Part shown: one piece after another, positions 6,681-52,648 of the stretch
Layout: every line of letters starts with the position of its first letter
Position numbering within the stretch: position 1 is the stretch's first letter
Assembly (NCBI GenBank): GCA_025928155.1
Contig: JAICKC010000011.1
Span: forward strand, 1 to 52,748
Source: Candidatus Saccharimonadota bacterium
GTDB lineage: Bacteria; Patescibacteriota; Saccharimonadia; Saccharimonadales; UBA4665
Direction of reading: 5' to 3'
Length of the DNA stretch: 52,748 bases
The notes under the pieces: model-generated
Told to the model about the DNA's origin: nothing
Seen by the model: the letters and a program-made list of their open reading frames with translations, nothing else
Database searches by the model: none
Made by a program: the position numbers and the translations under genes

Positions 6681-6700
6681 GGGTATGTTTAAATGGAGTG

Positions 6701-8047
6701 ATGAACATAGACCCTACCATATTCAAGGCGTACGACATCCGTGGCGAAGTCGGTACGCAGCTCAACGAGCAGACGGTTGAACAGATTGCCCGCGCCTACG
6801 CCAACTGGCTGCCTGTAAAAGGTACCGTTGCGGTCGGCCACGATATGCGGCCAGATTCAAGTGACTTGTCCCGGGCGTTTATTAAGGGCCTAACCGAGCA
6901 GGGACTGGACGTGTGGGACATCGGCAAGGTAACGAGCGACATGATCTACTTCGCGGTTGGCAAGTGGGATCTAGCTGGTGGGACGGTCATTACTGCCAGC
7001 CACAATCCGGGCAACGATAATGGTATAAAACTGTATCGCGATAAGGTTACGGCCGTCGGGCTGGATTCAGGTCTAAATGAAATCCGCGACAAAGCGATGA
7101 CCGGCGACCTCGGAGAACCGGCTGCCCAAGCGGGTATGGTTACGCCTAAGTCTATTACCGAGGATTGGATCACGCACTGTCTAACGTTTGTGAGCGAGCT
7201 CAAACCGTTCAAAATCGCGATTGACGCCGGTAACGGTATGGCCGGCGCAATCTTGCCAGCCATTTTACCAAAACTGCCGCTGCAAGTTCACGAAATGTAC
7301 TTTGAGCTCGACGGCACGTTCCCAAACCACGAAGCTAATCCCATGAAACCCGAAAACATGCAGGACTTAGCCGCCAAAGTCACGAGCCTAGGCCTGGATT
7401 TTGGCATCGCCTTCGACGGAGACGGAGACCGCGCCGGCTTCGTGGATGACAAAGGCCGGATTGTGTCAGGTAGTGATATATTGACCATCATGGCCAAAGA
7501 ATATCTGCAAAAATACCCAGGCGCGACCATTGTACGTGACGTCCGCATGAGCCACGCTATCGATAAACTAGTAGGTGAGTGGGGCGGTAAAACTGTCATA
7601 ACTCCAGTCGGGCGTGTTTACATTGGTGCTAAGATGCGCGAAATCAACGCCCCGCTCGGCGGCGAAGGCGCCTGCCACTATTACTTCGCCGAAAATAACG
7701 ACGCTGACAGTGGTCTGATAGCTGCCCTTGTGGCCGTGCAGGCCATCAGCGACAGCGGTAAGAAACTCAGCGAATTAATCGACGCCTACCACTTATACGC
7801 CATGGGGCCGGAAATAAACTTCAAGGTCGCTGATAAGGCGATGGTGTTTGCACTCCTACGCAAGGAATTTCAGAGCGAAAAACAGAGCGAACTCGATGGC
7901 TTGAGCGTAGACTTTGCCGATGGCAGTTGGTTTAATATACGCGCCAGTAATACGGAACCGCTGGTGCGCCTGAATGCCGAAGCCAAGTCTCAGGCTAAAC
8001 TGGACAGTTTAGTTGCTAATTTAACTGCGATCATTTCCGGCGAGTAG
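6701..8047 (+). CDS. manB: Phosphomannomutase/phosphoglucomutase
   Basis: This is a 448-residue alpha-D-phosphohexomutase. The N-terminus IFKAYDIRGE is the family opener. The phosphoserine loop is ITASHNPGNDNGIK with Ser100 as phosphate carrier. The metal site is FDGDGDRAGF near residue 240. The sugar-recognition loop is GGEGACHYYF, and the phosphate-binding loop SNTEPLVRLNAEA lies in domain 4. It interconverts mannose-6-P and mannose-1-P (and probably the glucose pair), feeding GDP-mannose synthesis with the ManC protein encoded nearby. A GTG three bases upstream is possible, but the ATG at 6701 fits better with GGAG just before it. The frame runs convergent to the second mutase gene. Confidence 0.93.
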   Translation: MNIDPTIFKAYDIRGEVGTQLNEQTVEQIARAYANWLPVKGTVAVGHDMRPDSSDLSRAFIKGLTEQGLDVWDIGKVTSDMIYFAVGKWDLAGGTVITASHNPGNDNGIKLYRDKVTAVGLDSGLNEIRDKAMTGDLGEPAAQAGMVTPKSITEDWITHCLTFVSELKPFKIAIDAGNGMAGAILPAILPKLPLQVHEMYFELDGTFPNHEANPMKPENMQDLAAKVTSLGLDFGIAFDGDGDRAGFVDDKGRIVSGSDILTIMAKEYLQKYPGATIVRDVRMSHAIDKLVGEWGGKTVITPVGRVYIGAKMREINAPLGGEGACHYYFAENNDADSGLIAALVAVQAISDSGKKLSELIDAYHLYAMGPEINFKVADKAMVFALLRKEFQSEKQSELDGLSVDFADGSWFNIRASNTEPLVRLNAEAKSQAKLDSLVANLTAIISGE

Positions 8048-8053
8048 CTAAGC

Positions 8054-9592
8054 CTACTGGAGCGCTGCTTCTATCTCGCGAAAAATGCCGTCTGGAGCAA
8101 GCGCGAGTGCCACGATTTCGTCGGCACGCTGCTGCGTATCGGCGACGCTGTAAATCCTAAGCTGTGGGGCATTACCTGACGGCCGCATATGAGCAATGTC
8201 GCCGCCCTGGAACGTGACGCGGATGCCATCAAGCGCGTCGATGGCCGCCACATCGCCAAAACCTCTTGCTGGACTAAAATACTGGGCCAGCTCTTGCCTG
8301 ACCTCCGCTGTGTCCTGCGTAAAGCGCTCCGTCATGCGAGCAGAGATTTCGGCAGGGAAGTCGTCGATCAGTCCGGCACCGGTGAATCGCGCCGGCAATG
8401 TAGCAAACAGTTCCGAAACTTTACCGCCAGCTCCACGCGCTGCCACCATCGCTACGATGAGAGGGAAGATAGCATCGCGCGTTGGCAGCGCTTTGAGCGT
8501 CCGACCGTTCACGGCCATGTCACGGCCAGTCATAAAACCGCCGTTTACCTCCCACCCCACCGGCCGCTCACCCGTGGCCGCTCCCATGGCGCTGATAACA
8601 TACGGCGAACCGATTTTGGTGTGCGCATAGGCCACGCCGTGTTGCGCTAAGTAGGTGTCGACTGCGTCGCTTGAACTGACCGGATACGCTGCCGAATCGG
8701 CTTGCAACCAAGTGGCGGCCACTGCCCCGAGCACATCGCCCCGGTGGAATAGTCCAGTTTCGTCAATCATAAACGGTCGGTCGCTGTCGCCATCGGTTGA
8801 CAGAAGGGCGAATGAACCCGGGTGCTTTGCGGCGAGCTCCATGAAGTACTGCTGGTTTTCGGGGGTGACGTTCTCACTGTCGATGGGAATAAATGTCTCG
8901 GAGCGGCCTTCGGGGATGACACGCGCGCCTAGTTTTTCAAGCAAACCAACCAGCAGGTCGCGCCCGACTGCGGAGTGTTGGTAAAACACCACTTGCAGAT
9001 CGCGCAGCGCCTCAGGCCCGAACACGCTTTCGTAGCGCTGGACGTACACTGCTGCCGCATCATCAGTTGCCGCGGGTAGCTCCGGTGCGTTTTTGAGCAT
9101 GCCTTCGTGATCAAACATGCTGACTGCCGCGTCTTGTGCGTACAGCTCGGCACGTACTGCTGCCACGGCGTCTTTTATATCCTGCTCGTCAGCTTTGAGC
9201 ACCTCACCTTCCCGCTTGTAGAATTTTATGCCGTTGCGGTCGGCTGGGATGTGGCTGCCGGTGACCATAATACAGGGCGCATTGTGCTCAAGTGCATAGT
9301 ACGCTACCGCTGGCGTGGGAATAAGTCCACAGTTAACTACCTGTAGCTTACTATCGACGGTCGCCTGGTATACAGCCCGTGTGATACGCGGTGTGCTATC
9401 CCGCAGATCGCCAGCCAGATATATTGTCTCGCTCGGTTGTAGCTCATCATGCGCTTGTAAAAAGTGTATGAAGCCCAGCGTGTTGATATAGCACTCCAGG
9501 TCAGTCATGTCGGTTACCAAAGCCCGCAAACCGGAGGTGCCGAATTTGAGCTCGTTCGGTTCATGGGTCAGAGATTCGCGGAGGCTTGTCAC
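8054..9592 (-). CDS. Second phosphohexomutase (phosphomannomutase-like)
   Basis: This is a 512-residue alpha-D-phosphohexomutase unlike its neighbour in length and motifs. It opens with ELKFGTSGLRALV, has TGSHIPADRNGIKFY with Ser113 as the likely phosphoserine, the metal loop STDGDSDRPF and the sugar loop GWEVNGGFMTGRD. The C-terminal phosphate loop reads MRPSGNAPQLRIY, where most members have SNTEP. It begins with GTG 3 nt after the manC stop, so the two are one operon and probably translationally coupled. Most likely it makes mannose-1-P for ManC, while the divergent family member at 6701 may handle glucose; the reverse is also possible. Two such mutases 6 bp apart in a small genome is notable. 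Confidence 0.88.
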   Translation of the reverse strand: MTSLRESLTHEPNELKFGTSGLRALVTDMTDLECYINTLGFIHFLQAHDELQPSETIYLAGDLRDSTPRITRAVYQATVDSKLQVVNCGLIPTPAVAYYALEHNAPCIMVTGSHIPADRNGIKFYKREGEVLKADEQDIKDAVAAVRAELYAQDAAVSMFDHEGMLKNAPELPAATDDAAAVYVQRYESVFGPEALRDLQVVFYQHSAVGRDLLVGLLEKLGARVIPEGRSETFIPIDSENVTPENQQYFMELAAKHPGSFALLSTDGDSDRPFMIDETGLFHRGDVLGAVAATWLQADSAAYPVSSSDAVDTYLAQHGVAYAHTKIGSPYVISAMGAATGERPVGWEVNGGFMTGRDMAVNGRTLKALPTRDAIFPLIVAMVAARGAGGKVSELFATLPARFTGAGLIDDFPAEISARMTERFTQDTAEVRQELAQYFSPARGFGDVAAIDALDGIRVTFQGGDIAHMRPSGNAPQLRIYSVADTQQRADEIVALALAPDGIFREIEAALQ

Positions 9593-9595
9593 GTC

Positions 9596-10636
9596 CTACT
9601 CTTCCTCCATACGCTTTACCGCCTCTTTAACCTTTTGGCTTAAGTCCTTGCGGGCGACCAGCACGCCGTTGGGTGTGTTCACTACCACAACATTGTCCAG
9701 ACCGATGACTACCACCGGCTTATCCTCTTCGTTGCGAATGTAAGTATTTGCAACTTCATCCTCGTAAATACCCGTGCCTCGGAAGTGGTTTCCCTGCTCG
9801 TCCGTCTCACTGGCCTCATGCAGATCCTTAAAGCTCCCGATGTCCATCCAGTCAAAGCTGGCCGGAACGACAGCAAGGTTCTCGGCTTTTTCTATCAAGG
9901 CTATATCGATAACTTCGTTGCCAAAGGCTTCGTATGCGGCGGCAAATTTCGGACTGTTCTGGTCGTCAACGGCCAGCAGCGCATCATAGTTAGCCTTGAG
10001 CTCCGGAGCATACTGTTCCATCGTGCTCACGAACGTGTTGACCGAACCAACGAAATAACCACAGTTCCATAGATACTTGCCGCTATTCACATAGCGCCGG
10101 GCGGTAGCAAAATCCGGCTTTTCCTTGAACGACTCAACCTTGTAAGCACCGCCGTCCTCAAGCTCGCCGTCGCGCTGGATATAGCCGAGGCCGATTGCCG
10201 GGAAGGTCGGCTCAACGCCGATGAGCGTAATGGTGTTGAGTCTTTTGCTCACGGCAGCGGCGGCTTTGAACGATTTCGCGAACCCCTGCACGTCCCGAAT
10301 GTGGTGGTCGGAGTGGACGAACGCGATCGGCTCGTCGTGATCGTGCCGCTTCGCTATGTAGGCTAGTGCGGCCACAATGCAGTTAGCTGTGCCGCGACGT
10401 GCCGGCTCATTGATAATGTGAGCGTCGTCTAGTTCAGGTATCTGCTGTTGGGTCTGGGCTGCGATGTCTTTGACCGGCACAATATAAACTTCTCCACCCA
10501 GTCGTTTGGCACGCTCATACGTGTTCTGCACCATACTCTTATCGTTGGTGAGCTGCAGCAGCTGTTTTGGATTCTCCGGTGTGCTTAACGGCCATAGCCG
10601 GCTCCCGGACCCACCCGCGATAATCACTACGATCAT
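9596..10636 (-). CDS. manC: Mannose-1-phosphate guanylyltransferase
   Basis: This is a 346-residue nucleotidyltransferase that joins GTP and mannose-1-P to give GDP-mannose. The signature VIIAGGSGSRLWPLSTPENPKQ is at the N-terminus, and FVHSDHHIRD is the metal-binding region. FKEKPDFATARRYVNSGKYLWNCGYF follows and matches ManC enzymes closely. FDWMDIGSFKDL near the end is also typical. The length fits the single-domain type without the C-terminal isomerase domain. It precedes the second phosphohexomutase gene by 3 nt. Upstream lies TATACT (10665-10670) and a purine-rich leader with AAGAGG. Confidence 0.94.
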   Translation of the reverse strand: MIVVIIAGGSGSRLWPLSTPENPKQLLQLTNDKSMVQNTYERAKRLGGEVYIVPVKDIAAQTQQQIPELDDAHIINEPARRGTANCIVAALAYIAKRHDHDEPIAFVHSDHHIRDVQGFAKSFKAAAAVSKRLNTITLIGVEPTFPAIGLGYIQRDGELEDGGAYKVESFKEKPDFATARRYVNSGKYLWNCGYFVGSVNTFVSTMEQYAPELKANYDALLAVDDQNSPKFAAAYEAFGNEVIDIALIEKAENLAVVPASFDWMDIGSFKDLHEASETDEQGNHFRGTGIYEDEVANTYIRNEEDKPVVVIGLDNVVVVNTPNGVLVARKDLSQKVKEAVKRMEEE

Positions 10637-15846: not shown

Positions 15847-16731
15847 ATGCATGCACAGCACCATCCAGCAACCACTATCCTCCTCAAAAGAGACGAGAAG
15901 CAATTCGAGACAACAGTTGCGTTCAATAATTTTGCAGATGGCGACACTCACTGCCTTATAGAGGACACGACGCACATACGAGGCGCAAGCGTGCTGGTAC
16001 GCCACTACCTGTACCCGAATCAAAACGAGCAGATTGTGCGTCTACTTTTTCTGGTCGCTACACTCAGGGATCTCGGTGCGCGCTCTATCGAGGTCTTCGC
16101 GCCCTACCTCCCCTACGCGCGTCAAGACAAGGCCCATCTGCCCGGCGAAATTATCAGCAGTAAGCTGTTATGCCGCATCATACATGAAAGTGGCGTGCGC
16201 GTATTACATACTATAGATTGCCACTTCATGAAAGGCGCCCCAGAAACTACCGTTGAGGGGCTAAAGATTCATAACCTTCTCGTGCAAGGCATGCTCGTTG
16301 AACACCTGGAAACAATCACGAACGAGCCATACCATATCATTGGCCCTGATGCCGGCTCGGCCTACCTAGCGGACGGCGAAACTATGAAAAAGGCACGTTC
16401 GGCCCATTACGATAAACACGCCGACGGGTCAATTCGTCGTTCGGTTGACACGCTCGACGACAAGCACTTAACTATCACCGATAAAACCATCGTGATAGCC
16501 GATGACATGATAAGCACCGGCGGCACCATGATCCGCGCCCTCGAAAATGTGAAGGAGCGTGGCGTACCGAATGTATACGCTATGACCTCTCATGGTCTGT
16601 TCCTGCAGGAGTCATTCGAGAAAATCGCTGTACTAACAACCGGCATGATATATTCCGACACTATTGCCCGCGAGGGTGCGGTGCCGGTAGTTGATGCCGT
16701 GTTTGAGGAAATAGCCAACCATCAACTGTAA
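15847..16731 (+). CDS. prs: Ribose-phosphate pyrophosphokinase (PRPP synthetase)
   Basis: This is a 294-residue PRPP synthetase, a little shorter than the usual 310-320. YLPYARQDKAHLPGEIISSK matches the active-site flexible region, VLHTIDCHF the metal-binding strand with His, and TIVIADDMISTGGTMIRALE is the PRPP-binding loop. It transfers pyrophosphate from ATP to ribose-5-P. The C-terminal GMIYSDTI region is also typical. It lies 20 bp before the UbiA-type gene that would use PRPP, and it is divergent to rpiB that would supply ribose-5-P. The product also feeds nucleotide salvage, so this placement suggests but does not prove a dedicated role in lipid-linked ribose synthesis. Confidence 0.9.
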   Translation: MHAQHHPATTILLKRDEKQFETTVAFNNFADGDTHCLIEDTTHIRGASVLVRHYLYPNQNEQIVRLLFLVATLRDLGARSIEVFAPYLPYARQDKAHLPGEIISSKLLCRIIHESGVRVLHTIDCHFMKGAPETTVEGLKIHNLLVQGMLVEHLETITNEPYHIIGPDAGSAYLADGETMKKARSAHYDKHADGSIRRSVDTLDDKHLTITDKTIVIADDMISTGGTMIRALENVKERGVPNVYAMTSHGLFLQESFEKIAVLTTGMIYSDTIAREGAVPVVDAVFEEIANHQL

Positions 16732-16738
16732 TCCCTTG

Positions 16739-16744
16739 TATAAT
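16739..16744 (+). promoter_or_regulatory. Consensus -10 box 7 nt before the UbiA-type gene
   Basis: A perfect TATAAT sits 7 nt before the ATG at 16752 and 8 nt after the prs stop. It gives the UbiA-type gene its own leaderless promoter. Confidence 0.6.
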
Positions 16745-16751
16745 AGGTTCA

Positions 16752-17609
16752 ATGTTAGGGAATCTCGTCAAGCTCATACGGCCGAAGCACTATATTAAAA
16801 ACGGCCTGATTTTTGTGCCTCTGCTTTTTGCAGGCAAGCTCAGCGAAAACGATAACTTTGTACGCACGCTCTGGGCATTCTTGGCGTTCTGCGCTATCGC
16901 TTCTATCGTCTACATCATTAACGACATTCGAGATGTTGAAAAAGATCGCGAGCACCCCAAAAAAAAGTTTCGTCCAATTGCATCTGGCGACGTATCTGTT
17001 AGCCAAGCGAGTATCCTCGCCACTGTTTTGGCGCTTGTTGCCGTCGGGTTTGGCTACCTTTCCAGGGCCGGCGTGGACACTTGGTCGTTGCTCGCAACAT
17101 ATCTTGCCATAAATATCATATATAGCGCAGGACTCAAGAATGTGCCCGTCTTGGATGTAACGATCTTGGCGGCTGGGTTTGTGCTACGCGTACTGTTTGG
17201 TGCCAGCGTGGTAGACATAGAGGTTTCACGCTGGCTCTACCTAACGGTGCTAGCGGGCGCATTCTACCTCGGGCTTGGCAAACGCCGTGGTGAGTTACTA
17301 ACCGTGGGTGCCAAAACGCGCAAAGTCAACGAGTTTTACACGCATAACTTTCTCGATAAAAATATGTACGTATGTTCTGCCCTCGCCCTAGTTTTCTATT
17401 CACTATGGGCAACTGACCCGTCTCGAGCTACTCACCACTCATTGTTCTGGACTATCCCCATCGTAATGATTTTGGTCATGACCTACAGTCTCGACGTCGA
17501 GAAAGATGGGTCGATGGGCGATCCGGTAGACGTGCTTACCGCTAATAAGACGCTCGCCTTCTTCGGTCTGCTGTACGTAGTATTAACTGCCTACTTGCTA
17601 TACATATGA
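16752..17609 (+). CDS. UbiA-family polyprenyl-phosphate phosphoribosyltransferase (DPPR synthase-like)
   Basis: This is a 285-residue membrane enzyme with about nine helices. The first Asp-rich motif is YIINDIRDVEKDREHPKKKF (ND..D...D..HP), the form found in decaprenyl-phosphate 5-phosphoribosyltransferases such as Rv3806c. The second region reads YSLDVEKDGSMGDPVDVL. The opening LVKLIRPKHYIKNGLIFVP is also typical of that branch. The reaction would be PRPP plus polyprenyl phosphate giving polyprenyl-phosphoryl-5-phosphoribose. prs directly upstream and a HAD phosphatase overlapping by 4 nt downstream support this over quinone, heme or chlorophyll prenylation. Lipid carrier length is unknown. 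Confidence 0.88.
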   Translation: MLGNLVKLIRPKHYIKNGLIFVPLLFAGKLSENDNFVRTLWAFLAFCAIASIVYIINDIRDVEKDREHPKKKFRPIASGDVSVSQASILATVLALVAVGFGYLSRAGVDTWSLLATYLAINIIYSAGLKNVPVLDVTILAAGFVLRVLFGASVVDIEVSRWLYLTVLAGAFYLGLGKRRGELLTVGAKTRKVNEFYTHNFLDKNMYVCSALALVFYSLWATDPSRATHHSLFWTIPIVMILVMTYSLDVEKDGSMGDPVDVLTANKTLAFFGLLYVVLTAYLLYI

Positions 17610-18196
17610 GCCATGCCGATTCCGTGAACGTTTACGATTTCGATCACACTATTTATCATGGCGACGCGTCATTGGATTTTATAATTTACTGCATGAGACG
17701 CAAACCGCGTACATGGAGACGTCTGCCCCTATCAGGTATAGCTGTGGTGAAGTATGTCTTTGCCCGAGCAACAAGGAAACAGGTTAAGCAAGCCGCTTTC
17801 GCATTTTTGCGTGATATGACGGACCTGGATACCGTTGTGCAAAATTTTTGGGACACTCATGAAAGCAAGATTAAGCCATGGTATTTAGAGCGAAAGCATT
17901 CGAGTGATCTTATAGTTTCCGCCTCTCCAGAGTTTTTGCTAAGACCAATCGCTGAGAGACTTGGTATTGCGCCGCCGATTGCCACACTCATGGACACGCG
18001 CACTGGACAAATAATTGGCAAAAATTGCCGTGCGGACGAAAAAGTTAGACGTCTTCGCGCATACGATCCATCCATAGAAATCGCTAATTGCTACAGTGAC
18101 AGCCCCTCCGATCTGCCGCTGCTCAAACTAGCCGATAAAGCATACATGGTAAAAAAGCACACTCTGGTCGAGCTATCGCATGATAGTATGAAGTGA
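17606..18196 (+). CDS. HAD-IB family phosphatase
   Basis: This is a 196-residue HAD hydrolase. Motif I is VYDFDHTIYHGD (DxDxT), motif II LIVSASPEFLL, the Lys region IGKNCRADEK, and motif IV CYSDSPSDLPLL. A helical cap sits between motifs I and II, as in SerB-like HAD-IB enzymes. It overlaps the UbiA-type gene by 4 nt (ATGA), so the two are coupled. In the mycobacterial pathway a phosphatase must remove the 5-phosphate from decaprenyl-phosphoryl-5-phosphoribose; this is the natural candidate for that step. Similar HAD and UbiA pairs occur in other bacteria, sometimes fused. Substrate is inferred. Confidence 0.88.
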   Translation: MSHADSVNVYDFDHTIYHGDASLDFIIYCMRRKPRTWRRLPLSGIAVVKYVFARATRKQVKQAAFAFLRDMTDLDTVVQNFWDTHESKIKPWYLERKHSSDLIVSASPEFLLRPIAERLGIAPPIATLMDTRTGQIIGKNCRADEKVRRLRAYDPSIEIANCYSDSPSDLPLLKLADKAYMVKKHTLVELSHDSMK

Positions 18197-29339: not shown

Positions 29340-29822
29340 ATGAATAAAGTAAAGGACGTTTACAGACGTATCCCACGCATACCTAAATTACCTTACTTGC
29401 TTATAGTCCTGGTCATAGTAGCGCTATCAGGTATCTTTGGCTACAGACACTTCCACATAGCGCATGTAGTAATCGCTAAAAACAACCTCAATTCCAAGCA
29501 TCAATCGAGCCCAAGTCAACCTCCCCAAACCCACCCGGCGCAAAGTAATGGCCAAACTTTCCCGGTGCCCGATAACGTTCCGGCCGGCTCTATCAAAAAC
29601 TATACGCTCATTACCGAAAACGAAAATTATATGATTCAAGAGTTGGACGGCGCATATAAAATAACCCTCTATCCTATTATTAATAACCCGAGTGAATCAG
29701 CCAGCTACCAACAGGAACTTCACGATTATAAGCAGGCTGCCCTGCAATATATGACGCAGCATGGAATAAATGTAAAGAAAGTAAGTATAACCTATGATCC
29801 GCCCGAAGCTGCTCAAGACTAA
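29340..29822 (+). CDS. Single-pass membrane protein of unknown function, upstream partner of the lectin
   Basis: This is a 160-residue protein I do not recognise. A basic N-terminus (MNKVKDVYRRIPRIPK) leads to one helix at about 19-36 (YLLIVLVIVALSGIFGY). Next is a Ser/Gln/Pro-rich linker (SSPSQPPQTHPAQ), then a folded-looking external domain of about 95 residues (YTLITENENYMIQELDGAYK). The topology is Nin-Cout. It overlaps the secreted transglycosylase-lectin gene by 29 nt, which suggests coupled translation. It might help anchor or regulate the lectin at the surface. Confidence 0.72.
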   Translation: MNKVKDVYRRIPRIPKLPYLLIVLVIVALSGIFGYRHFHIAHVVIAKNNLNSKHQSSPSQPPQTHPAQSNGQTFPVPDNVPAGSIKNYTLITENENYMIQELDGAYKITLYPIINNPSESASYQQELHDYKQAALQYMTQHGINVKKVSITYDPPEAAQD

Positions 29823-31941
29823 ACTCGTAGCCCTAGCCGTACTACTCGGCTTCGTTTTAACCGTCGCTATACCCACCACCCTTTCGACAGTTCTACCAAG
29901 GGCGTTTCAACATGCCGATGCAGCGACTACGGACTGTACGGACGTATTCACGCCATTGAACAGCTTTATTACACAAGATGCAGCCGCCAACCAGAGCGTC
30001 TACATACAAGCTATGAATGCAACCGGCGTACCGTGGGCGCTATTGGCGGCTATACATTATCGTGAGACAAACTTCAGCCTGACTGAGCCAGGTAATGGGC
30101 AGGGTCTGTTCCAGGATGGCTACGCAGTCGCCGGCGCCGGTACCATCCTTAATGGCAACCAGTTTTATCAGGAGGCCCTCCATGCAGCGCAGATTATCCA
30201 GAGCTCGTACGTGTTCCGCAATTCACCCAATGCCGCAGCGTCGGTTACCCCAAGGGCGCTTACGTCAAATGAGCAGGATATTAACTTGATAAAGAACACG
30301 CTCTACAGCTGGAACGGGCGAGCTGGGTCGTATGCCCAGCAGGCGACCAACTACGGTTTTAACGCGTCGCTCCAACCCTACGAAGGCTCACCATATGTTA
30401 TGAATCGTTTTGACTGCCAACGCGACCGTATGGGCATCATTACCCAGGATGGTGGCGCTATTAGTGGTCTCGATACCCGCTACGGCGCATTTACAGTCTA
30501 CGCTCGCCTACAAGGCGATGCATACTGGCTGTCTATGCTGCAGCCATACACCTGGGGGCTCAGTAGCCAAGAAGCATACACTGACAGCGGCTACACTACA
30601 GAATATACCGACCCTGCCAACCCGACCGTCGCCCCGGGGCAAAAGGCCTATCTCAAGCTTGTGGCACGAAACATAGGCCAGAACACCTGGAGTCAGGGCG
30701 TCGTTCACCTAGGCACAACCTATCCCGGCGACAGGGCAAGCGTCTTCGATGACGGCAGCTGGCTCTCTCCGCAACGAATCGGGATGCAGGAAGCTAGTGT
30801 TATTCCGGGTGGTACAGCCACATTCCAGTTTTCAATCACAGCCCCTACTATCCCTGGCACCTACGTTGAGCACTTTAGTCTCGTCGCAGACGGCATTACC
30901 TGGCTTAATGACCCTGACATCTATTACACCATTGACGTAGCTAACCCCGTACTGGCTACCAATACGCAGAATACTAGCTTGTCGGTCAATCAATACCTAC
31001 TTCCCGGAGACCGACTCATGTCACCAGATTCACAAAATGTCCTCACCCTACTTCCAAATGGAAATGTAGCGCTATATTCAGGGCTTAAGCAAATTTGGAA
31101 TAATGGCGTTAATAACCCGGATGCGCAAGATCTGGTCATGCAAAGCGACGGTAACCTGGTGGAATATAGTAGTAGTGGGGCGCTATGGGCAAGTGGAACA
31201 GGCGGAGCAAATAATTACTTGTCCATGCAATCGGACGGCAATGTGACCATACGCACTAGTGGTGGTAGTTCCATATGGTCAACTAATACTCCATCCGTAC
31301 CAGACTACCTTAGCAAGGCTGTCTCTTCAGTGCCTGCAGGTGGCGTCATGTATCCCGGCCAGTTCATACAGACCGCTGATCGTGCCTATACGTTAGTACT
31401 ACAGCCCGGCGATGGCAATCTAGTCGAATATAATAGCGCCGGTCACGCCGTATGGGCGAGTGGGACCAGCGGGGGCAACGACGTGGCAGTAATGCAAGGC
31501 GACGGCAATTTTGTTGTCTACGGTAGCGGCGGTAAAGCGCTATGGGCAAGTGGGACGGGTGGGGGTGGCAATAGTCTGACACTCCAACCTGGCGGTGTCC
31601 TGGCAATTACCAATGGCAATAACGCCATACTATGGAGTGGCCATGCTTTATATCCCGGCCAGTTCATACAGACCGCTGATCACGCATATGCGTTGGTCAT
31701 GCAGAGTGATGGTAATTTAGTGGAATACGCCAGCAATGGTCACGCCGTATGGGCGAGTGGGACCAGCGGACGCAATGACGTGGTCGTAATGCAGAGTGAT
31801 GGTAATTTAGTCATCTACGGTACAAACGGCAGGCCTTTATGGGCGACCAGCACGAGCGGACGAGGTAGTGTTTTCGCGCTCCAGACAGATGGTAATATGG
31901 TTATCTATGGCAGCAACGGACATCCGTTGTGGTCCAGATAA
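29794..31941 (+). CDS. Secreted transglycosylase-like protein with bulb-type (mannose) lectin repeats
   Basis: This is a 715-residue exported protein. A signal peptide or anchor covers about 1-45 (KLVALAVLLGFVLTVAIPTT) and ends near HADAATT. Residues about 50-250 carry a lysozyme/transglycosylase-like domain with VPWALLAAIHYRETNFS, where the Glu of YRETN is the likely acid, and GLFQ. An Ig-like domain (about 270-385, NIGQNTWSQ, PGTYVEHFSL) follows. The C-terminal 320 residues are B-lectin repeats. The mannose-binding pattern QxDxNxVxY is seen at least four times exactly or nearly (MQSDGNLVEY twice, MQSDGNLVIY, LQTDGNMVIY), with more degenerate copies. The combination suggests binding to mannose-rich surface glycan and cutting of peptidoglycan, on the cell's own or a host envelope. 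Confidence 0.88.
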   Translation: MIRPKLLKTKLVALAVLLGFVLTVAIPTTLSTVLPRAFQHADAATTDCTDVFTPLNSFITQDAAANQSVYIQAMNATGVPWALLAAIHYRETNFSLTEPGNGQGLFQDGYAVAGAGTILNGNQFYQEALHAAQIIQSSYVFRNSPNAAASVTPRALTSNEQDINLIKNTLYSWNGRAGSYAQQATNYGFNASLQPYEGSPYVMNRFDCQRDRMGIITQDGGAISGLDTRYGAFTVYARLQGDAYWLSMLQPYTWGLSSQEAYTDSGYTTEYTDPANPTVAPGQKAYLKLVARNIGQNTWSQGVVHLGTTYPGDRASVFDDGSWLSPQRIGMQEASVIPGGTATFQFSITAPTIPGTYVEHFSLVADGITWLNDPDIYYTIDVANPVLATNTQNTSLSVNQYLLPGDRLMSPDSQNVLTLLPNGNVALYSGLKQIWNNGVNNPDAQDLVMQSDGNLVEYSSSGALWASGTGGANNYLSMQSDGNVTIRTSGGSSIWSTNTPSVPDYLSKAVSSVPAGGVMYPGQFIQTADRAYTLVLQPGDGNLVEYNSAGHAVWASGTSGGNDVAVMQGDGNFVVYGSGGKALWASGTGGGGNSLTLQPGGVLAITNGNNAILWSGHALYPGQFIQTADHAYALVMQSDGNLVEYASNGHAVWASGTSGRNDVVVMQSDGNLVIYGTNGRPLWATSTSGRGSVFALQTDGNMVIYGSNGHPLWSR
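31351..31680 (+). repeat. Direct repeats inside the lectin gene, 300-bp period
   Basis: 31351-31380 and 31651-31680 are identical over 30 bp, exactly 300 bp apart. Further matched blocks (such as GGTCACGCCGTATGGGCGAG at about 31440 and 31738) flank them. This reflects recent duplication of a lectin module pair and could allow recombination that changes lectin length. Confidence 0.85.
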
Positions 31942-46140: not shown

Positions 46141-47559
46141 TCAACCTTCAGGGATGAGCGCAGTTGTAAACTGCAGACCGCTTATATCAACGAGGCCTTG
46201 CAGAGTAGTCTGTGCTGATTGCAACGAACTTGCCCGCTCGCTATCAACTGGTACGGACACGACAATAGTCGGCGTGCCGGCAAAGTTAACCATACTAATC
46301 GAATAGTCATTTTCGGTGATGGGTAATAGAAGTTGGAGTCGATATACAACGTCTGGTACTGGCTGGCCCTTCAGGTTGATTCGCCGAATCGCGTCTACTT
46401 GATTAGTGTAGCTGTCCAAGGTGGTCAGGTAGATTGCTGTTTTATCGGTGCTTACCGACAAGCTCTTAATCTGCTCATTGAGGGGTGCATTACCGATGAT
46501 CTGCGACCGTTGCTGTGCCACGCTATACGACCACAGTTCACTACCGACGCTATAAAGGAGCGTGTTGTCGTCAAGCCACGTGGCATACGAGATACTGCTC
46601 TCGGGTATGGAGGCTACTGGATGCAGCGAGGTGTCAAAAATCCTGCCTGTCCTGCCGGCGAGGATGGCTATGTATTTATCGCCGGGTGACCACGGTGACC
46701 AGCCGGTAATCGACGCATCAAAGTTCTTATGCGCGGTCTTGCCGTCTTTTCGGACGACTACTACTTGCGGTTTCGTGCCATTCAGCCCAGTTGTGATAGA
46801 GGCTACCTCGTTGTTGCCAGCCGCCAGCGCATCGTTAGATGATTTATTAGTATAAATCTGCTTGAGGCCACTACTGGCGGTGCCGCTATACAGGGCTGAC
46901 CCGGAGGCGACATATATAGTACGGTTTGGTGTCACCGCATATAAGGTGCCGGCACTATCACTGGCAGATACTGGCGACGTAAGTGGTGTGACGGATGTGT
47001 TATTGATGACGAACAGTCCTTGCGACGAGTCGAGCCCTACGCCATAAGTCGGACTTGCCCAGGCGGCTGACAAAAAACCATTGGTATTTGGTACTACGCT
47101 GTCGTTATTGCTGGTGTCTATATAATGGATACCAGTTGTTTGGTCGAGATACGCCAGATGGGAGCTATCAGCAGCAACATTTTGCAAGTTGCCGTATACA
47201 ACAGGGGCTATGCCGCTCGGCTTGGCTGTCTGGAGACTGATACGGGTGGTCGCATTTCGTCCCTTAACTTTAACGTACTGGCTGGTGCCGTTACTGCCGT
47301 TCTCGACGGACACGTAATACTCGCCGGTGTGCAGGCTGACGGCAAGCGAACCACTGCCCTGCCGCGAGACGTTACTTTTATTCGAAACCGGCAGGACGCT
47401 GATATCGGTATACTTACTGTTTGTGGTCACCACCAAGTTGCCGGTAGTGAAGTAATGGTAGAGCCACTCGCCTCCGCTCACCAGTAAGATTAGGGCAGCC
47501 ACGACAGCGAGCACGATGGGTACTAGTCGCCGGACTGTCAGGTTGTAGTTGTTTTGCAT
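46141..47559 (-). CDS. Membrane-anchored beta-propeller protein with PEGA-like domain
   Basis: This is a 472-residue protein. A helix at about 12-30 (LVPIVLAVVAALILLVSGGE) anchors it with the bulk outside. Residues about 38-110 resemble a PEGA domain (LVVTTNSKYTDISVLPV, LHTGEYYVSVEN). The remaining 350 residues are repeats of 40-50 with patterns such as SHLAYLDQTTGIHYIDTSNN and GWSPWSPGDKYIAILAGRTG, as in six- to seven-blade propellers. It is last in a leftward operon with two wall-active proteins, 19 nt after the hydrolase gene. GAGAGG lies before its ATG. A scaffold or binding role at the surface is inferred. Confidence 0.75.
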   Translation of the reverse strand: MQNNYNLTVRRLVPIVLAVVAALILLVSGGEWLYHYFTTGNLVVTTNSKYTDISVLPVSNKSNVSRQGSGSLAVSLHTGEYYVSVENGSNGTSQYVKVKGRNATTRISLQTAKPSGIAPVVYGNLQNVAADSSHLAYLDQTTGIHYIDTSNNDSVVPNTNGFLSAAWASPTYGVGLDSSQGLFVINNTSVTPLTSPVSASDSAGTLYAVTPNRTIYVASGSALYSGTASSGLKQIYTNKSSNDALAAGNNEVASITTGLNGTKPQVVVVRKDGKTAHKNFDASITGWSPWSPGDKYIAILAGRTGRIFDTSLHPVASIPESSISYATWLDDNTLLYSVGSELWSYSVAQQRSQIIGNAPLNEQIKSLSVSTDKTAIYLTTLDSYTNQVDAIRRINLKGQPVPDVVYRLQLLLPITENDYSISMVNFAGTPTIVVSVPVDSERASSLQSAQTTLQGLVDISGLQFTTALIPEG

Positions 47560-47578
47560 ATGTTACCTCTCATACCAC

Positions 47579-49681
47579 TTAACTTCCTGGTCCCGTCCAC
47601 CGCCAAGCGCCACCGCTCCAGTCTCCTATCCCGCTCTTAACTTCACCGATTTTTTCTCCAGTTTGGTGAGCGCCGAAAGTCGTTAATGTATTGCCTGAAA
47701 CACTGACAACAATCTCCACATGCTCGTTTACTTGAGTTACGATGTCGCCAGGCTTTGCTTGAGCAACCGGGACGGACTTCCAGTAAGAGTCCGCCAGCCC
47801 GCTCCCTGACATGCCGGTTACGCTTGTAGAGAATGGGGTACCCACGCCTACGATCCATTGGTATTTTTTGTTGTAAGCGTCGTCTACGGCTATGCTTACT
47901 AAGCCGCTACAGTCAAGCCCGCAAGGACTTGGGTTGCCGCTCAAGCCCGACGGGTCGCCATTTATAGGCCCTCCATGTGGCTGGTTATTCGGTGGGCTGA
48001 GCGGGTTTGGGCAGCCTTTCTTGAAGTTGTCGTACCCCTGGTGGCCACCAGCCCACTCGTAGTAAATACCCGTATAGCACCGCGCGGCGGCAAGAATTTT
48101 AGCTGTACCGGTAACTTGGCCGACGCCGGCGCAGCTTGCGTTGGCGCCGTTACCACTACCGCTGGTGCAGTCCTGGGCAGCGTTGTTGGTAATAGTGCCG
48201 GATACACTTATGCTACTCCCAGTAACTAGATAGTGGTAGGTATTGCGCACGGACAGTGCATATTGTGAACCGTTGTAACGCACCCCTGCTTTATATGCGT
48301 TTGCATCGCCGACGTTCATACCCTTCACACCCGCCGCGTGGATGATGTAACTTGCCGCTGTAAACATGGCATCTGCAAGGTCGTTAAGTACTATTTTTCC
48401 GTCTCCGTCTCCGTCCTCTCCATACGCGTTTTTATCGAGGTCGTTTAGACCATAGGGTGCCCAATAGCCGAGGCTATTTTGTCCGACAACGAAAAAATTG
48501 GTGTTATTTCCGGCAGGTGCTGGCGGCTCAGCCCAGTTTCCATCCCCATTGTATGGTGGTGGCTTTGCTGAGTCTCCATGGTTGCCCGACGAGTCGCCGG
48601 TATTGCCCGTCTCTGTATAATAGAACGTTGCGATGAGGTTTGGGTCTAGGCCGTTTTTTTGTCCGGCGGCGACGGCGAACTGCTGGAATTTTTGTTGCGC
48701 GGCCGGTGTCATGCCCTTCCCGACGCGTGATGATATGCTCCCAGTGACGCTCGTTGATCCTGTGGCCGTGGTTGCGGCACCGGTCATTAAGGCACTCACC
48801 AGATCTTTGATGGTGCCTTCGCCGTCAGTCTGGCTCTTGGCGCCGCCTACGGTTACCGCGACACCGTAGGTAACGTTGTTGACAACAAAATGTGCCGCCT
48901 GGTTGACAATCCATGGGCTGCCCGCCGTTCCGGTTGGTTCCGATTTCCACCCCTCCTTTGAATACACAGGGGCTGGTAGGCCGGCTTGTAGTAAACCGTT
49001 CTTTGGGGATACGTTTGACAGTAGGCCAGTAGCGAATGTCCGTTGCGGGGCGGGAATCAGGGTGTCAATCTTCGAAAAGAATCTGGCGAAATCGTCGGCG
49101 GTTATCTGAGATTGACCTAATTTGTACAAGGGGTCGCTGGTATCGAGTTTGAAGTCCACCATACCGGCGGTACTGGCCATGGCATTGATAGCGGTGTTGG
49201 CGTTGGTGATACGCGCGTAGATACGGTTTGCAGCTGCATTGTCGGAGTTTTCTATCATTTTTTGGAGGTCGGCTTTTGCATCGGCTGGCAACGCACCGGA
49301 ACCCACTTGATCGAGGTATGTCACCAGTAGCATCGATTTGGTTATCGAAGCACCGTAGTTCGGAGACGTATTGTTATTGAAGGCTATTAGGTTGCCACTC
49401 TGTTCATATAACGCATAACCCACGTTCTGACCGTTTGCCTTGGCTTGGGCAAGTACCTTTTGGACTGCCGCGAGCACCGTAGTGTTTATAGTGAGGCCAG
49501 GTGATCCGCTGGTGGATGTACTACAGCCGTTGTCTTGTGCAATATTAAATAAGTGTATATTCCAGTGGTAGAGCTGATTTTGTGTTAGGGTGTTTGCGGC
49601 AGAGGCCGTACCTCCGCAGAGTACATACAGAACGGTCATTCCCCACACTGACCACCGAATTCCTCTGAGGTGGCGTATCAT
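47579..49681 (-). CDS. Secreted serine hydrolase (beta-lactamase-like) - transglycosylase-like - NlpC/P60 fusion
   Basis: This is a 700-residue exported protein with a signal peptide (WGMTVLYVLCGGTASAA, about 13-29). Domain 1 (about 60-300) is class A beta-lactamase/PBP-like: Ser112-Ile-Thr-Lys115 (SxxK) and Ser146-Asp-Asn (SDN); the third motif reads KEG where KTG or KSG is usual. Domain 2 (about 325-490) resembles transglycosylases (NGLDPNLIATFYYTETGN) with an EF-hand-like DGDGDGKIVLNDL. Domain 3 (about 525-700) is NlpC/P60: CGLDCSGLVSIA with catalytic Cys, NEHVEIVVS with His and FGAHQ. One chain thus joins three wall-directed activities. It starts 3 nt after the upstream stop with GAGGT before it. 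Confidence 0.88.
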   Translation of the reverse strand: MIRHLRGIRWSVWGMTVLYVLCGGTASAANTLTQNQLYHWNIHLFNIAQDNGCSTSTSGSPGLTINTTVLAAVQKVLAQAKANGQNVGYALYEQSGNLIAFNNNTSPNYGASITKSMLLVTYLDQVGSGALPADAKADLQKMIENSDNAAANRIYARITNANTAINAMASTAGMVDFKLDTSDPLYKLGQSQITADDFARFFSKIDTLIPAPQRTFATGLLSNVSPKNGLLQAGLPAPVYSKEGWKSEPTGTAGSPWIVNQAAHFVVNNVTYGVAVTVGGAKSQTDGEGTIKDLVSALMTGAATTATGSTSVTGSISSRVGKGMTPAAQQKFQQFAVAAGQKNGLDPNLIATFYYTETGNTGDSSGNHGDSAKPPPYNGDGNWAEPPAPAGNNTNFFVVGQNSLGYWAPYGLNDLDKNAYGEDGDGDGKIVLNDLADAMFTAASYIIHAAGVKGMNVGDANAYKAGVRYNGSQYALSVRNTYHYLVTGSSISVSGTITNNAAQDCTSGSGNGANASCAGVGQVTGTAKILAAARCYTGIYYEWAGGHQGYDNFKKGCPNPLSPPNNQPHGGPINGDPSGLSGNPSPCGLDCSGLVSIAVDDAYNKKYQWIVGVGTPFSTSVTGMSGSGLADSYWKSVPVAQAKPGDIVTQVNEHVEIVVSVSGNTLTTFGAHQTGEKIGEVKSGIGDWSGGAWRWTGPGS

Positions 49682-49684
49682 CTG

Positions 49685-52648
49685 TTACCTCACGTCCACG
49701 TGTACATGGTCACAGCTGTCCGGAAAGAATAAAACGTTGTTTGGTTTGGGAGGTATGGTCTCAGTGGTGAAGCATAGCTGCTGGCCGATTGCTCCCCCGC
49801 CATTCGCCGATAACAGCCCTGCCATGTACGCATAGAACTGCTTGAGGAGCGGCTGTTCACCAGAGTTCCAGTTTATGAAGTTACCAGTACTTGGGAAAGA
49901 GTTGTCGAGCGGTGTGATACCGTTGATGTCCACGGCGATGCCTATGTCGTGCAATCCATCGCCACAATGGTGGCCGTCGTCGAAAACACCGAGGACGAGC
50001 TTATATTTCTGAGAGGCTGTCAGTATGATGCCGAGCAGCTTGGGCGATATGGCCGGATTGCCGCAGTTCGTTTGGTGCCCGGTATTCACTATTTCCTGGA
50101 AATCTTGTCCCTCTTGCGGAGTTTGGAAGGTGATGTTCGGACTGGCCAAAATGAGCTTGGCAAGCTGCTGGGAACTGCCGCTGGGCAGGCTTGTACCGCT
50201 CGTTGATGGTGTGGCCGGAGTCGTGGCGGCAGTCGTGCCGGCACCATTGTTCTGGCATGAGGTGGGATCGTCGTACTGTGCGCAGGTGTAGCCTTCCATG
50301 ACGCCAGTATCGAGAATAAACATTCGTACGCGCAGCCACTCAGCGTTGCCCGCATCGCGGCAGCCGCTGGCGTCGTAGGCTTTGGAGTACATGTTAACGT
50401 CCTGATCGGGTATGACATCCCACACGTGGTCGGAGTTGTCTTTGCTAATCTGGTCACCAAAGCAAGTTTCGGCTTTCTGGATATAACTGCAGGATGTGTT
50501 AGTGGTGCCATCGCTGTTCAGGCAATTGGTATCGAGCATCTTAGCGACGGTCTCCGCGTTGACATAGGGGTCTCCCACGGTCTTGTTATCCAGATCTGCC
50601 TGGCTGAAGTCGTACTCCGAGAACGGGTAGTCATAGGGCTGAACGACATCGGCATGCGCAATATTTGGTATGAGATTGAACGGCATTTGCATGGCTGACG
50701 AACCGGCGCCCATAACCGTACCGAGTAAGCCCTGAGCGTTGGCGGTGGGGCTTACGCTGAGGGCGTCCGCAAGGTGTCCAGCCAACGATCGGTAGTCAGT
50801 CATATCGAATGTCCGGGCAAAAAAGCTCTCCGAATCGAAGGCCTGCCGCTGCTCTTGCTGGGTTTGCATGCTAAGCTTCGTAGCCTCAGCCGAGGTCAAA
50901 GCTACGCCTCCCGTGTGCACCGAGCTATCATTTGCTCCAAACGCGGCGCCGTAAGCTGTCTCTGCCCCGTATAAGGCGCCGTGCGCCGCGGTGTCAGCCG
51001 CCTCGCCGGCCAGCAGATGAGACAGCTTATCTATAACGAGTGGTCCTCCTATACTGCTGGCTACGAAGCCAGCCGCGGTACTTACAGCCCCGCCACTAAA
51101 GATACCAATAGCAACACTCACTACGCCGTTCACTACCTGTCCCGCGGTGCTGCAGAGTGCGCCAACCAGAGCGTTCTGGGTCCAATCTAGCCAAGGAACG
51201 CCATGCTGTCCGATCAGGTCTTTTGTACCGTTGGTCTCCATGGGGTCAACGCCTCCGCTCTGGCCAGTTGAGGCTCGTATCTCCACGGCGCTGTTCCAGT
51301 TGCTTATCACGTTGCCCTTGCTGTCCACTTCGTTAAAGCTCTGAGCCAAGTAGTTAACCTCATCTGGATCAACATCCTGCCCCGACATGATCTGGTTGCC
51401 GACGGTTATGGCGTCCATACCCATACGCGTAAGAGGTGCGATAATTTGTGCATAGCGTATCTCGTCGACGTGGTCGTCAACAGCCTTGGCGGCGCAGACC
51501 AAGCCCACTGCGGCACCTAAGCCGCCAGTAATTCTTAGCGTTTTGCTCGCTGCGATTGATTTCAAGGTGTCTGATATCTTGCTGCTTTTGGAGGTGTCTA
51601 CGGTAGCGCTTTGATTGGTAGTAATGGGGTTCCCCTTGCTGTCCACGCCGGTTTGCTCTCTGGCGGCTGATGCATCTATCTGCACAGGGTCGACGCCAGT
51701 CTTGAGCCGAGTTTGCCACTTCTCTTTCAGTAAGTTAAAGATCTTTAGGGCAGTATTGTTGGCTTTCTTATCGATAATATTCATAGGGTGCCACGAAACC
51801 AGTCCGAACTTACGCAGAACTCTTGCTCTGGCGTCGGTCGACACGCCATTGAGGTTGAGCTCGCCGAGTGAAGCTTTGATGGCTTTACGCTGACTCCAGT
51901 AGGTGTTGGCATCTACTTGTAGCCTATTACCGTTTATGGTGGGTTTTATGCCGGTATTCTGTTCAAAGGCGGTCGCCGCCTCCCGGGGTGTCATATCCGT
52001 GTATGGAGTGTCTGGATGGCTGAGGTCGACCGTGAAGCCCTTGTACGTACTGAAGTTTCCGTAATCCGGAACGATGCCTATGGAAGCGAGGTCGGCAAGT
52101 ATTCGGCCGTGGTATTTGCTGCCAAGCCAGCCGAGCCGGGTTTCGCCGGCACTCCCTCCGGAACGTAGCCAGCGGTACATCTTGCCCATGCGGCCATCCC
52201 CGGCGTCTTCCTGCTGGGAAAAATGTGCGTTGTGCAGGACTTGGGCTAGATGTACGAACTGCAGCGGTCCGGCGAGAAAAGACGTCCCGATCACGCCGCC
52301 TGTCAGGCCGGCCCCCACTAAGGCACCAGCAGCCTGCACCTTTCGTCTGGTTATAAAGCGCCGCACCCGGCCGGGTTCTTCGGGGTGGTAGCCACCGCCC
52401 AGCCGGTCGTTAGCAGCCTCTTCTTCGCTGGCCTTTAGGCTTTTGCGATCAACCGCACTTGAGCCGCCTCCTCCGCGTGGCGTCGTTCCGTCGCCTGATT
52501 CCTCAGCCTTACGCTGGTCATACTCGGCGAGCATTCGTTCTTTGCGGCGGCTGCTCAAGGCGGTACTATCGGCAATCATCGCCCGATTGTAGTCAAAATT
52601 ATGAAGTGGATTCTTGTCGCCGTTTGCGTTGGAGTCGTTGTAAGCCAA
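49685..52648 (-). CDS. Large multi-helix membrane protein with C-terminal M15-like peptidase domain
   Basis: This is a 987-residue protein from a TTG start; an in-frame stop lies seven codons upstream, so few other starts exist, and the Shine-Dalgarno is weak. The first 100 residues are polar. Helices follow at about 105-130 (VQAAGALVGAGLTGGVIGTS), in the middle (RITGGLGAAVGLVCAAKAV) and at about 500-555 (a Gly/Ala-rich block). A Gln/Asn-rich external part precedes the last 160 residues. These carry HCGDGLHDIGIAVDI and CDHVHVDVR, which fit the HxxGxAxD and HxH zinc motifs of VanY-like M15 peptidases. Similar proteins occur in Saccharibacteria T4SS loci by memory. It is first in the operon with the hydrolase fusion gene. 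Confidence 0.75.
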   Translation of the reverse strand: MAYNDSNANGDKNPLHNFDYNRAMIADSTALSSRRKERMLAEYDQRKAEESGDGTTPRGGGGSSAVDRKSLKASEEEAANDRLGGGYHPEEPGRVRRFITRRKVQAAGALVGAGLTGGVIGTSFLAGPLQFVHLAQVLHNAHFSQQEDAGDGRMGKMYRWLRSGGSAGETRLGWLGSKYHGRILADLASIGIVPDYGNFSTYKGFTVDLSHPDTPYTDMTPREAATAFEQNTGIKPTINGNRLQVDANTYWSQRKAIKASLGELNLNGVSTDARARVLRKFGLVSWHPMNIIDKKANNTALKIFNLLKEKWQTRLKTGVDPVQIDASAAREQTGVDSKGNPITTNQSATVDTSKSSKISDTLKSIAASKTLRITGGLGAAVGLVCAAKAVDDHVDEIRYAQIIAPLTRMGMDAITVGNQIMSGQDVDPDEVNYLAQSFNEVDSKGNVISNWNSAVEIRASTGQSGGVDPMETNGTKDLIGQHGVPWLDWTQNALVGALCSTAGQVVNGVVSVAIGIFSGGAVSTAAGFVASSIGGPLVIDKLSHLLAGEAADTAAHGALYGAETAYGAAFGANDSSVHTGGVALTSAEATKLSMQTQQEQRQAFDSESFFARTFDMTDYRSLAGHLADALSVSPTANAQGLLGTVMGAGSSAMQMPFNLIPNIAHADVVQPYDYPFSEYDFSQADLDNKTVGDPYVNAETVAKMLDTNCLNSDGTTNTSCSYIQKAETCFGDQISKDNSDHVWDVIPDQDVNMYSKAYDASGCRDAGNAEWLRVRMFILDTGVMEGYTCAQYDDPTSCQNNGAGTTAATTPATPSTSGTSLPSGSSQQLAKLILASPNITFQTPQEGQDFQEIVNTGHQTNCGNPAISPKLLGIILTASQKYKLVLGVFDDGHHCGDGLHDIGIAVDINGITPLDNSFPSTGNFINWNSGEQPLLKQFYAYMAGLLSANGGGAIGQQLCFTTETIPPKPNNVLFFPDSCDHVHVDVR

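What the first reader, a model, noticed from the sequence alone, without database searches (positions are those of the whole stretch)
29340..31941. Secreted transglycosylase joined to a mannose-type B-lectin, with a coupled membrane partner
A lytic-type domain, an Ig-like domain and repeated QxDxNxVxY lectin motifs are joined in one exported protein, overlapping a single-pass membrane protein gene by 29 nt. Binding a mannose-rich surface while cutting peptidoglycan is what an epibiont needs at its attachment site.
Basis: partly seen in the sequence, partly recalled or inferred. Interest (0 to 1): 0.72.

Follow-up and report, generated by a model that had tools for sequence, protein, structure and literature searches.

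The report
Lectin-tailed wall-cutting enzyme with membrane partner
A tiny bacterium of a group known to live on other bacteria carries a secreted protein that joins a wall-cutting domain, related to the one in its kin's secretion machines, to three sugar-binding domains, and it is inherited together with a small membrane protein from the same machine, so it probably cuts cell walls where it holds a sugar-coated surface.

Summary
ORF 29794-31941 (715 aa) has a signal peptide, a lysozyme/SLT-like head with the catalytic Glu invariant (E91, 33/33 homologues), an NBR1-type Ig domain and three B-lectin domains (5 of 9 pockets intact). It overlaps a 160-aa single-pass membrane protein gene by 29 nt. 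The genome is a Saccharibacterium (Patescibacteria).

In other Saccharibacteria they are neighbours in the type IV secretion (T4SS) locus beside recF-dnaN-dnaA, with the head in the VirB1 (wall-cutting) position. There the partner can instead follow a canonical SLT, GH73 or phage-lysozyme protein. In six genomes head and partner left the T4SS together, swapped order, overlap, and acquired varied surface tails. The Ig+B-lectin tail is closest to a commoner family with another head and its own upstream membrane protein. So a (partner+head) module was exchanged on a recurrent sugar-binding tail.

Most likely role: an exported muralytic enzyme held at a glycan-coated surface, probably the host's at the attachment site. 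Mannose specificity, host targeting, transglycosylase chemistry and partner contact are not shown; GDP-mannose genes in the window make self-binding a real rival.

The parts
29340..29822 (+). partner gene, 160 aa: basic N-terminus, one TM helix (model helix aa 16-47), low-confidence linker, then an extracytoplasmic beta-beta-beta-alpha-beta domain
   Evidence: homologues adjacent to the head in 21 of 22 genomes with both
29589..29813 (+). conserved partner domain (aa about 84-158; ENxxYxI...TLYxIxNxP...KQxAxxY...P.EA)
   Evidence: well-predicted part of the model (pLDDT about 68-95)
29794..29822 (+). 29-nt overlap of partner and head genes (likely translational coupling)
   Evidence: overlaps of 20-56 nt in the other surface-type loci L087, L088, L089
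29794..31941 (+). secreted lytic head - Ig - B-lectin protein, 715 aa
29794..29922 (+). Sec signal peptide (cleavage near ADA-ATT, aa 43/44)
   Evidence: sequence shows directly; aligned homologues have a similar N-terminus
29989..30516 (+). lysozyme/SLT-like head, aa 66-241; catalytic Glu E91 at 30064-30066; Q107; W173-N174-G175
   Evidence: E91, Q107, N174, G175 in 33/33 homologues; hhalign to SLT profile 94%, E 1.4e-7
30544..30948 (+). NBR1-type Ig-like domain (Pfam stretch aa 278-367 = 30625-30894)
30979..31293 (+). B-lectin domain 1 (one intact pocket, two degenerate)
31327..31629 (+). B-lectin domain 2 (one intact pocket, two degenerate)
31630..31938 (+). B-lectin domain 3 (all three pockets intact; aligned nearly end to end with the M. 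smegmatis B-lectin 4oit)
46141..52648 (-). this genome's own T4SS arm beside recF: VirB6-like (49685-52648), Beta-lactamase2 + lysozyme-like + NlpC/P60-like protein in the VirB1 slot (47579-49681), 472-aa protein in the partner slot (46141-47559)
   Evidence: the lysozyme-like and NlpC parts of the 700-aa protein are read from its sequence, not from a database hit
6698..10636 (.). two phosphomannomutase/phosphoglucomutase-type genes and a mannose-1-phosphate guanylyltransferase-type gene (supports the self-binding rival)

Best explanation
A (membrane partner + lysozyme-like head) module, whose relatives serve as the VirB1-type wall-cutting step of the Saccharibacterial type IV secretion system, has been re-used as a free-standing surface system. 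Both genes are translated together. The 715-aa protein is exported by Sec; its B-lectin/Ig tail holds it on a mannose/D-rhamnose-type glycan surface and its head cuts peptidoglycan glycan strands there. The most likely target is the wall of the bacterium on which this epibiont sits, opening it locally at the contact site. The single-pass partner, with its conserved domain on the outside, most likely binds the head and anchors or restrains it before release. Shown: anatomy, motifs, conserved pairing, common origin with the T4SS pair, tail exchange. Inferred: enzymatic activity, sugar specificity, target cell, partner-head contact, direction of transfer from T4SS to surface.
For: Head is in the SLT/lysozyme superfamily with all three motif sites conserved. 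In other Saccharibacteria the same head + CHAP lies between a VirB6-like/VanY protein and the partner, in a locus with PrgI and a VirB4/TraG ATPase beside RecF-like, DnaN and DnaA. In genomes with partner but no such head, the gene directly upstream of the partner is SLT (4 loci), GH73 glucosaminidase (4 loci), phage-lysozyme (2 loci) or another protein, often with CHAP, so the slot is a muralytic one. Head and partner are co-located in 21 of 22 genomes holding both; 5 upstream (surface type), 16 downstream. The six surface-type heads form one group (90/84; 1 change against 5.6 in shuffles), each with the partner upstream but with different tails: Ig+B-lectin (window, L089), Ig repeats (L087), propeller-like repeats (L003), other repeats (L088). 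The tail is nearest to proteins with another head, which have their own 171-209 aa single-TM protein directly upstream in 17 of 18 cases. Literature: the Saccharibacterial T4SS is essential for epibiotic growth, and lysozyme and peptidase genes next to virB4 are essential (PMC10633639, PMC12102498).
Against: No biochemical data. The head is too remote for Pfam, and no usable structure was obtained. The partner fold has no clear match and contact with the head rests on synteny. Four of nine lectin pockets are degenerate. The window has GDP-mannose genes, so the lectin could bind the cell's own glycans. Host identity is unknown.
Confidence: 0.55

Rival explanations
1. Self-anchored autolysin: the B-lectin/Ig tail holds the protein on the epibiont's own mannose-containing surface polysaccharide and the head remodels its own wall (growth, budding, assembly of envelope machines).
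For: The gene sits in a glycosyltransferase/Wzt-type ABC export cluster; the window also has PMM/PGM-type and mannose-1-phosphate guanylyltransferase-type genes and a decaprenyl-phosphate phosphoribosyltransferase. No cell-wall anchor is seen at the C-terminus, so a lectin tail could be the anchor.
Against: The tail type is exchanged among relatives (Ig, propeller-like, B-lectin), more like a variable outward recognition part than a conserved self-anchor; B-lectins of relatives are also joined to subtilases and CHAP domains.
Confidence: 0.25
2. It works with the T4SS: a detached VirB1-type subunit that opens the wall (own or host) for the secretion channel, with the lectin tail fixing the machine at the contact site.
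For: Head and partner are of T4SS kinship; the gene lies about 12 kb from dnaA, with this genome's T4SS arm just beyond recF; this genome holds only one copy of head and of partner.
Against: The T4SS arm of this genome has its own lysozyme-like + NlpC-like protein in the VirB1 slot; surface-type loci lie among glycosyltransferases.
Confidence: 0.12
3. Antagonism: a lectin-targeted wall-cutting toxin (like a lectin-like bacteriocin with an enzyme head) against rival bacteria, with the membrane partner as an immunity protein.
For: Tail resembles putidacin/pyocin L (NCBIfam LLB_putidacin 189.7 bits); a small membrane protein is coupled to a muralytic enzyme.
Against: Below the LLB cut-off (275); the partner is also found in T4SS loci next to unrelated muralytic enzymes, which fits a machine part better than an immunity protein.
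Confidence: 0.05

Closest known systems
VirB1-type T4SS wall-cutting proteins of monoderms (SLT + CHAP; e.g. TraG of pIP501, TgaA of Bifidobacterium, as cited in PMC12102498)
   Same: Lysozyme/SLT-like head; homologous head + CHAP sits beside VirB6/VirB4 in relatives
   Different: Here no CHAP, not in the T4SS operon, Ig + three B-lectins instead, partner upstream and overlapping instead of downstream
Saccharibacterial Ig + B-lectin proteins with another N-terminal head (e.g. L105:9149-11098, L166, L156)
   Same: Same NBR1-Ig + B-lectin tail (44% identity over 477 aa to L166), membrane protein gene directly upstream in 17 of 18
   Different: Head and partner are not detectably related to those of the window; their head is at best weakly lysozyme-like (38% at the Glu motif)
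Lectin-like bacteriocins LlpA (putidacin L1, pyocin L1)
   Same: Tandem B-lectin domains, best matches among solved structures
   Different: No enzyme head in LlpA; here three lectin domains, an Ig domain, a partner gene, and a score below the family cut-off
M. smegmatis LysM-B-lectin (PDB 4oit)
   Same: B-lectin domain 3 aligns over nearly its full length with three intact pockets; a B-lectin joined to a wall-related domain in a bacterium
   Different: LysM binds peptidoglycan, here a cutting head; no partner gene known to me

Membership tests
SLT/lysozyme-like muralytic superfamily (head) | catalytic Glu in the ES/ET motif | tested here: met
   E91 in 33/33 homologues, aligned with the SLT Glu
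SLT/lysozyme-like muralytic superfamily (head) | GLMQ and AYN motifs in the right order | tested here: met
   G104-L-F-Q107 and W173-N-G175 align with GLMQ and AYNxG
SLT/lysozyme-like muralytic superfamily (head) | score above a curated family cut-off | tested here: not met
   no Pfam hit for the window head; one of 19 relatives hits PF01832 at 0.0013 and one PF13406 at 0.13
Lytic transglycosylase in the strict sense | 1,6-anhydro product | not testable with these tools
   needs enzyme assay; hydrolase not excluded
VirB1-like T4SS component | located with VirB4/VirB6 genes | tested here: not met
   the window copy lies in a glycan locus; its relatives in L090-L102 are located so
VirB1-like T4SS component | homology to the wall-cutting protein of the T4SS locus | tested here: met
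   head 36-48% identical to T4SS-linked heads, one alignment
B-lectin (PF01453) | score above cut-off and QxDxNxVxY motifs | tested here: met
   60.7 bits against 32.4; five strict motifs
B-lectin (PF01453) | mannose binding | not testable with these tools
   pocket motifs only; the family also binds D-rhamnose (PMC3916391, abstract)
Lectin-like bacteriocin LlpA (NF033557) | score above the curated cut-off | tested here: not met
   189.7 against 275 bits
VirB8-like protein (partner, considered) | VirB8/NTF2-like fold of the outer domain | tested here: inconclusive
   predicted b-b-b-a-b domain, no clear structural match; profile finds only weak hits

The most novel reading that the evidence does not exclude
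Saccharibacteria carry interchangeable two-gene cassettes, each a membrane partner plus its own wall-cutting head, that move between the T4SS VirB1 slot and free surface proteins and are joined to exchangeable glycan-binding tails, forming a modular, lectin-aimed host-wall opening system whose tail sets host range; the partner is an unrecognised conserved T4SS component of Saccharibacteria.
Probability: 0.3. Interest if true: 0.82.

Novelty: new variant of a known kind. Interest (0 to 1): 0.55.

Why it matters
How Patescibacteria pick a host and open its envelope is an open question; their T4SS is essential but its role is unknown (PMC11665869). This gene pair links three things that can be tested together: a T4SS-related wall cutter, a conserved membrane partner that I did not find named in the T4SS survey I searched, and a sugar-binding tail that varies between species. 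If the tail decides which host wall is cut, it gives a concrete, assayable basis for host specificity.

Tried and rejected
AlphaFold2 of the 715-aa protein with 5 rows gave pLDDT 46 and was not used. Fold searches with the partner model gave no clear match: best Z 5.2 among mixed folds, no viral hit at E 0.001. PDB profile search with the head found nothing up to E 10; with the partner, 3g6i at 0.0046 over 47 residues, taken as chance. hhalign of the head profile to single E. coli transglycosylases was weak, though EmtA, MltC and MltB aligned in the Glu-motif register; a family profile was needed. The idea that the 472-aa protein (46141-47559) holds a diverged partner domain was not significant. 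The other head (L105 type) is not clearly homologous to this head (4.8%), nor its partner to this partner (0.15%). Literature searches for B-lectin in Patescibacteria or a lectin-transglycosylase fusion found nothing on point. The NBR1-Ig hit is under Pfam's cut-off; accepted because of E 2e-5 and homologous domains in relatives.

Full report
Observation. The window is contig C33 (52,748 bases) of a 1.30-Mb genome, 98% complete, whose relatives are Saccharibacteria. The 715-aa product has a signal peptide, a 176-aa head (aa 66-241), an NBR1-type Ig domain and a B-lectin tail (60.7 bits). The nine repeat sites fall into three B-lectin domains; five match QxDxNxVxY strictly, including all three of domain 3, which aligns nearly end to end with the M. 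smegmatis B-lectin 4oit.

Head. No Pfam family is reached. Thirty-three homologues were gathered from Saccharibacterial genomes. E91, Q107, N174, G175 and the GSPYV stretch are invariant or nearly so. A profile of the head against a profile of 34 SLT domains (30 from the phylum; four from E. coli K-12) gives 94% and E 1.4e-7, with E91 on the SLT Glu, GLFQ on GLMQ and WNG on AYN; 14 control families reach at most 1.8%. So the lytic reading is supported at superfamily level; whether it is a transglycosylase or a hydrolase is not known.

Partner. The 160-aa protein has one TM helix after a basic N-terminus, so its conserved domain should lie outside (model: helix 16-47, then b-b-b-a-b, with pLDDT about 90 over most of the domain and a dip to 68 in one 10-residue block). 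No fold match is clear. In a sample of 290 genomes of the order, 44 have the head and 41 the partner; 22 have both, and in 21 of these the two are neighbours on one strand. In 16 the partner is downstream, in 5 upstream; a sixth upstream case is L027.

Where the pair comes from. In the downstream type the neighbourhood is largely constant: PrgI, VirB4/TraG ATPase, a large VirB6-like protein ending in VanY, the head joined to CHAP, the partner, then RecF-like, DnaN, DnaA (Pfam on L097). This matches the chromosomal T4SS that is essential for epibiotic growth in S. epibionticum (PMC10633639), where lysozyme and peptidase genes next to virB4 are essential and no VirB8 was found (PMC12102498). In genomes that have the partner but not this head, the gene directly upstream of the partner is SLT (L188, L189, L193, L198), GH73 glucosaminidase (L194, L195, L196, L200; CHAP also in two of these), phage-lysozyme (L192, L199) or a less clear protein. 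The slot is thus filled by different muralytic enzymes, and the partner is the constant part.

The surface type. In the window, L087, L088, L089, L003/L026 and L027 the partner is upstream; it overlaps the head gene by 20-56 nt in the four loci where the ORF caller measured it. Their heads form one group in the tree (90/84, 90% of bootstrap trees); the T4SS types lie outside it. The tails differ: Ig + B-lectin (window, L089), Ig repeats (L087), propeller-like repeats (L003), other repeats (L088). Several sit among glycosyltransferases. That the T4SS form is the older one is inferred from its wider spread; the tree is not rooted.

The tail. Ig + B-lectin of the window is closest to L166, L156, L105 and others (44% over 477 aa), which carry a different head. 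Of 18 such proteins, 17 have a 171-209 aa single-TM protein directly upstream, gap -26 to +8; one of these proteins, L177, has no detected Ig domain. This head and partner are not detectably related to those of the window. Thus both the head and its partner seem to have been exchanged together while the tail stayed, which suggests that the partner belongs to the head. This is inference from gene order.

This genome. It has one copy of head and partner. dnaN lies in the window at 43955, with dnaA- and recF-type neighbours, followed by a VirB6-like protein (49685-52648; 28% over 823 aa to L093's), a 700-aa protein in the VirB1 slot with a Beta-lactamase2 domain and, read by eye, lysozyme-like and NlpC/P60-like parts, and a 472-aa protein in the partner slot. 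VirB4 is on C3 and a second on C17. So the T4SS probably has another cutter, and the lectin-tailed protein is probably not the VirB1 of this cell.

Mechanism. Most likely: co-translated pair; the partner sits in the membrane with its domain outside and holds or restrains the head; the enzyme is exported, binds a mannose- or D-rhamnose-type glycan by the tail and cuts peptidoglycan there, most likely of the host. The main rival is self-binding: the window has two PMM/PGM-type genes and a mannose-1-phosphate guanylyltransferase-type gene, and a Wzt-type export system.

Known or new. Each domain is known; fusions of B-lectin tails to enzyme-type heads are a recurrent Saccharibacterial theme, though I found no paper that describes them. 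New here are the T4SS kinship of the pair, its exchange as a unit onto surface tails, and the partner as a constant neighbour of the T4SS wall cutter. I rate it a new variant of a known kind.

Noticed in passing
15847-18196: PRPP-synthetase-type gene, decaprenyl-phosphate phosphoribosyltransferase (NF008978, 226 bits over a cut-off of 207) and HAD phosphatase: looks like the arabinofuranose-donor branch known from actinobacterial walls, in an epibiont group that lives on Actinobacteria.
   Followed up: partly
6698-10636: Two PMM/PGM-type genes and a mannose-1-phosphate guanylyltransferase-type gene without the isomerase domain (253 bits, cut-off 373).
   Followed up: partly
46141-49681: T4SS slots filled by a 700-aa Beta-lactamase2 + lysozyme-like + NlpC-like protein and a 472-aa protein whose C-terminus (LLPITENDYSI) faintly recalls the partner domain; not significant.
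   Followed up: partly
L159:2324-4516, L160:4049-5989: Saccharibacterial B-lectin tails joined to subtilisin-like protease domains, read from sequence.
   Followed up: no
L165:3552-4829, L175:3458-4771: B-lectin tails joined to CHAP-like domains, read from sequence.
   Followed up: no
L198:2733-4670, L190:3156-5171: GDSL-type acylhydrolase (possible peptidoglycan O-deacetylase) at the N-terminus of the protein in the T4SS wall-cutting slot.
   Followed up: no
L180:5399-10444: A 1033-aa head protein with a partner-type gene overlapping upstream and a second partner-type gene downstream, in G157.
   Followed up: no
L109:857-2401, L110:3335-4879, L111:3305-4993: Viral contigs with B-lectin repeats inside what look like phage tail proteins.
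   Followed up: no
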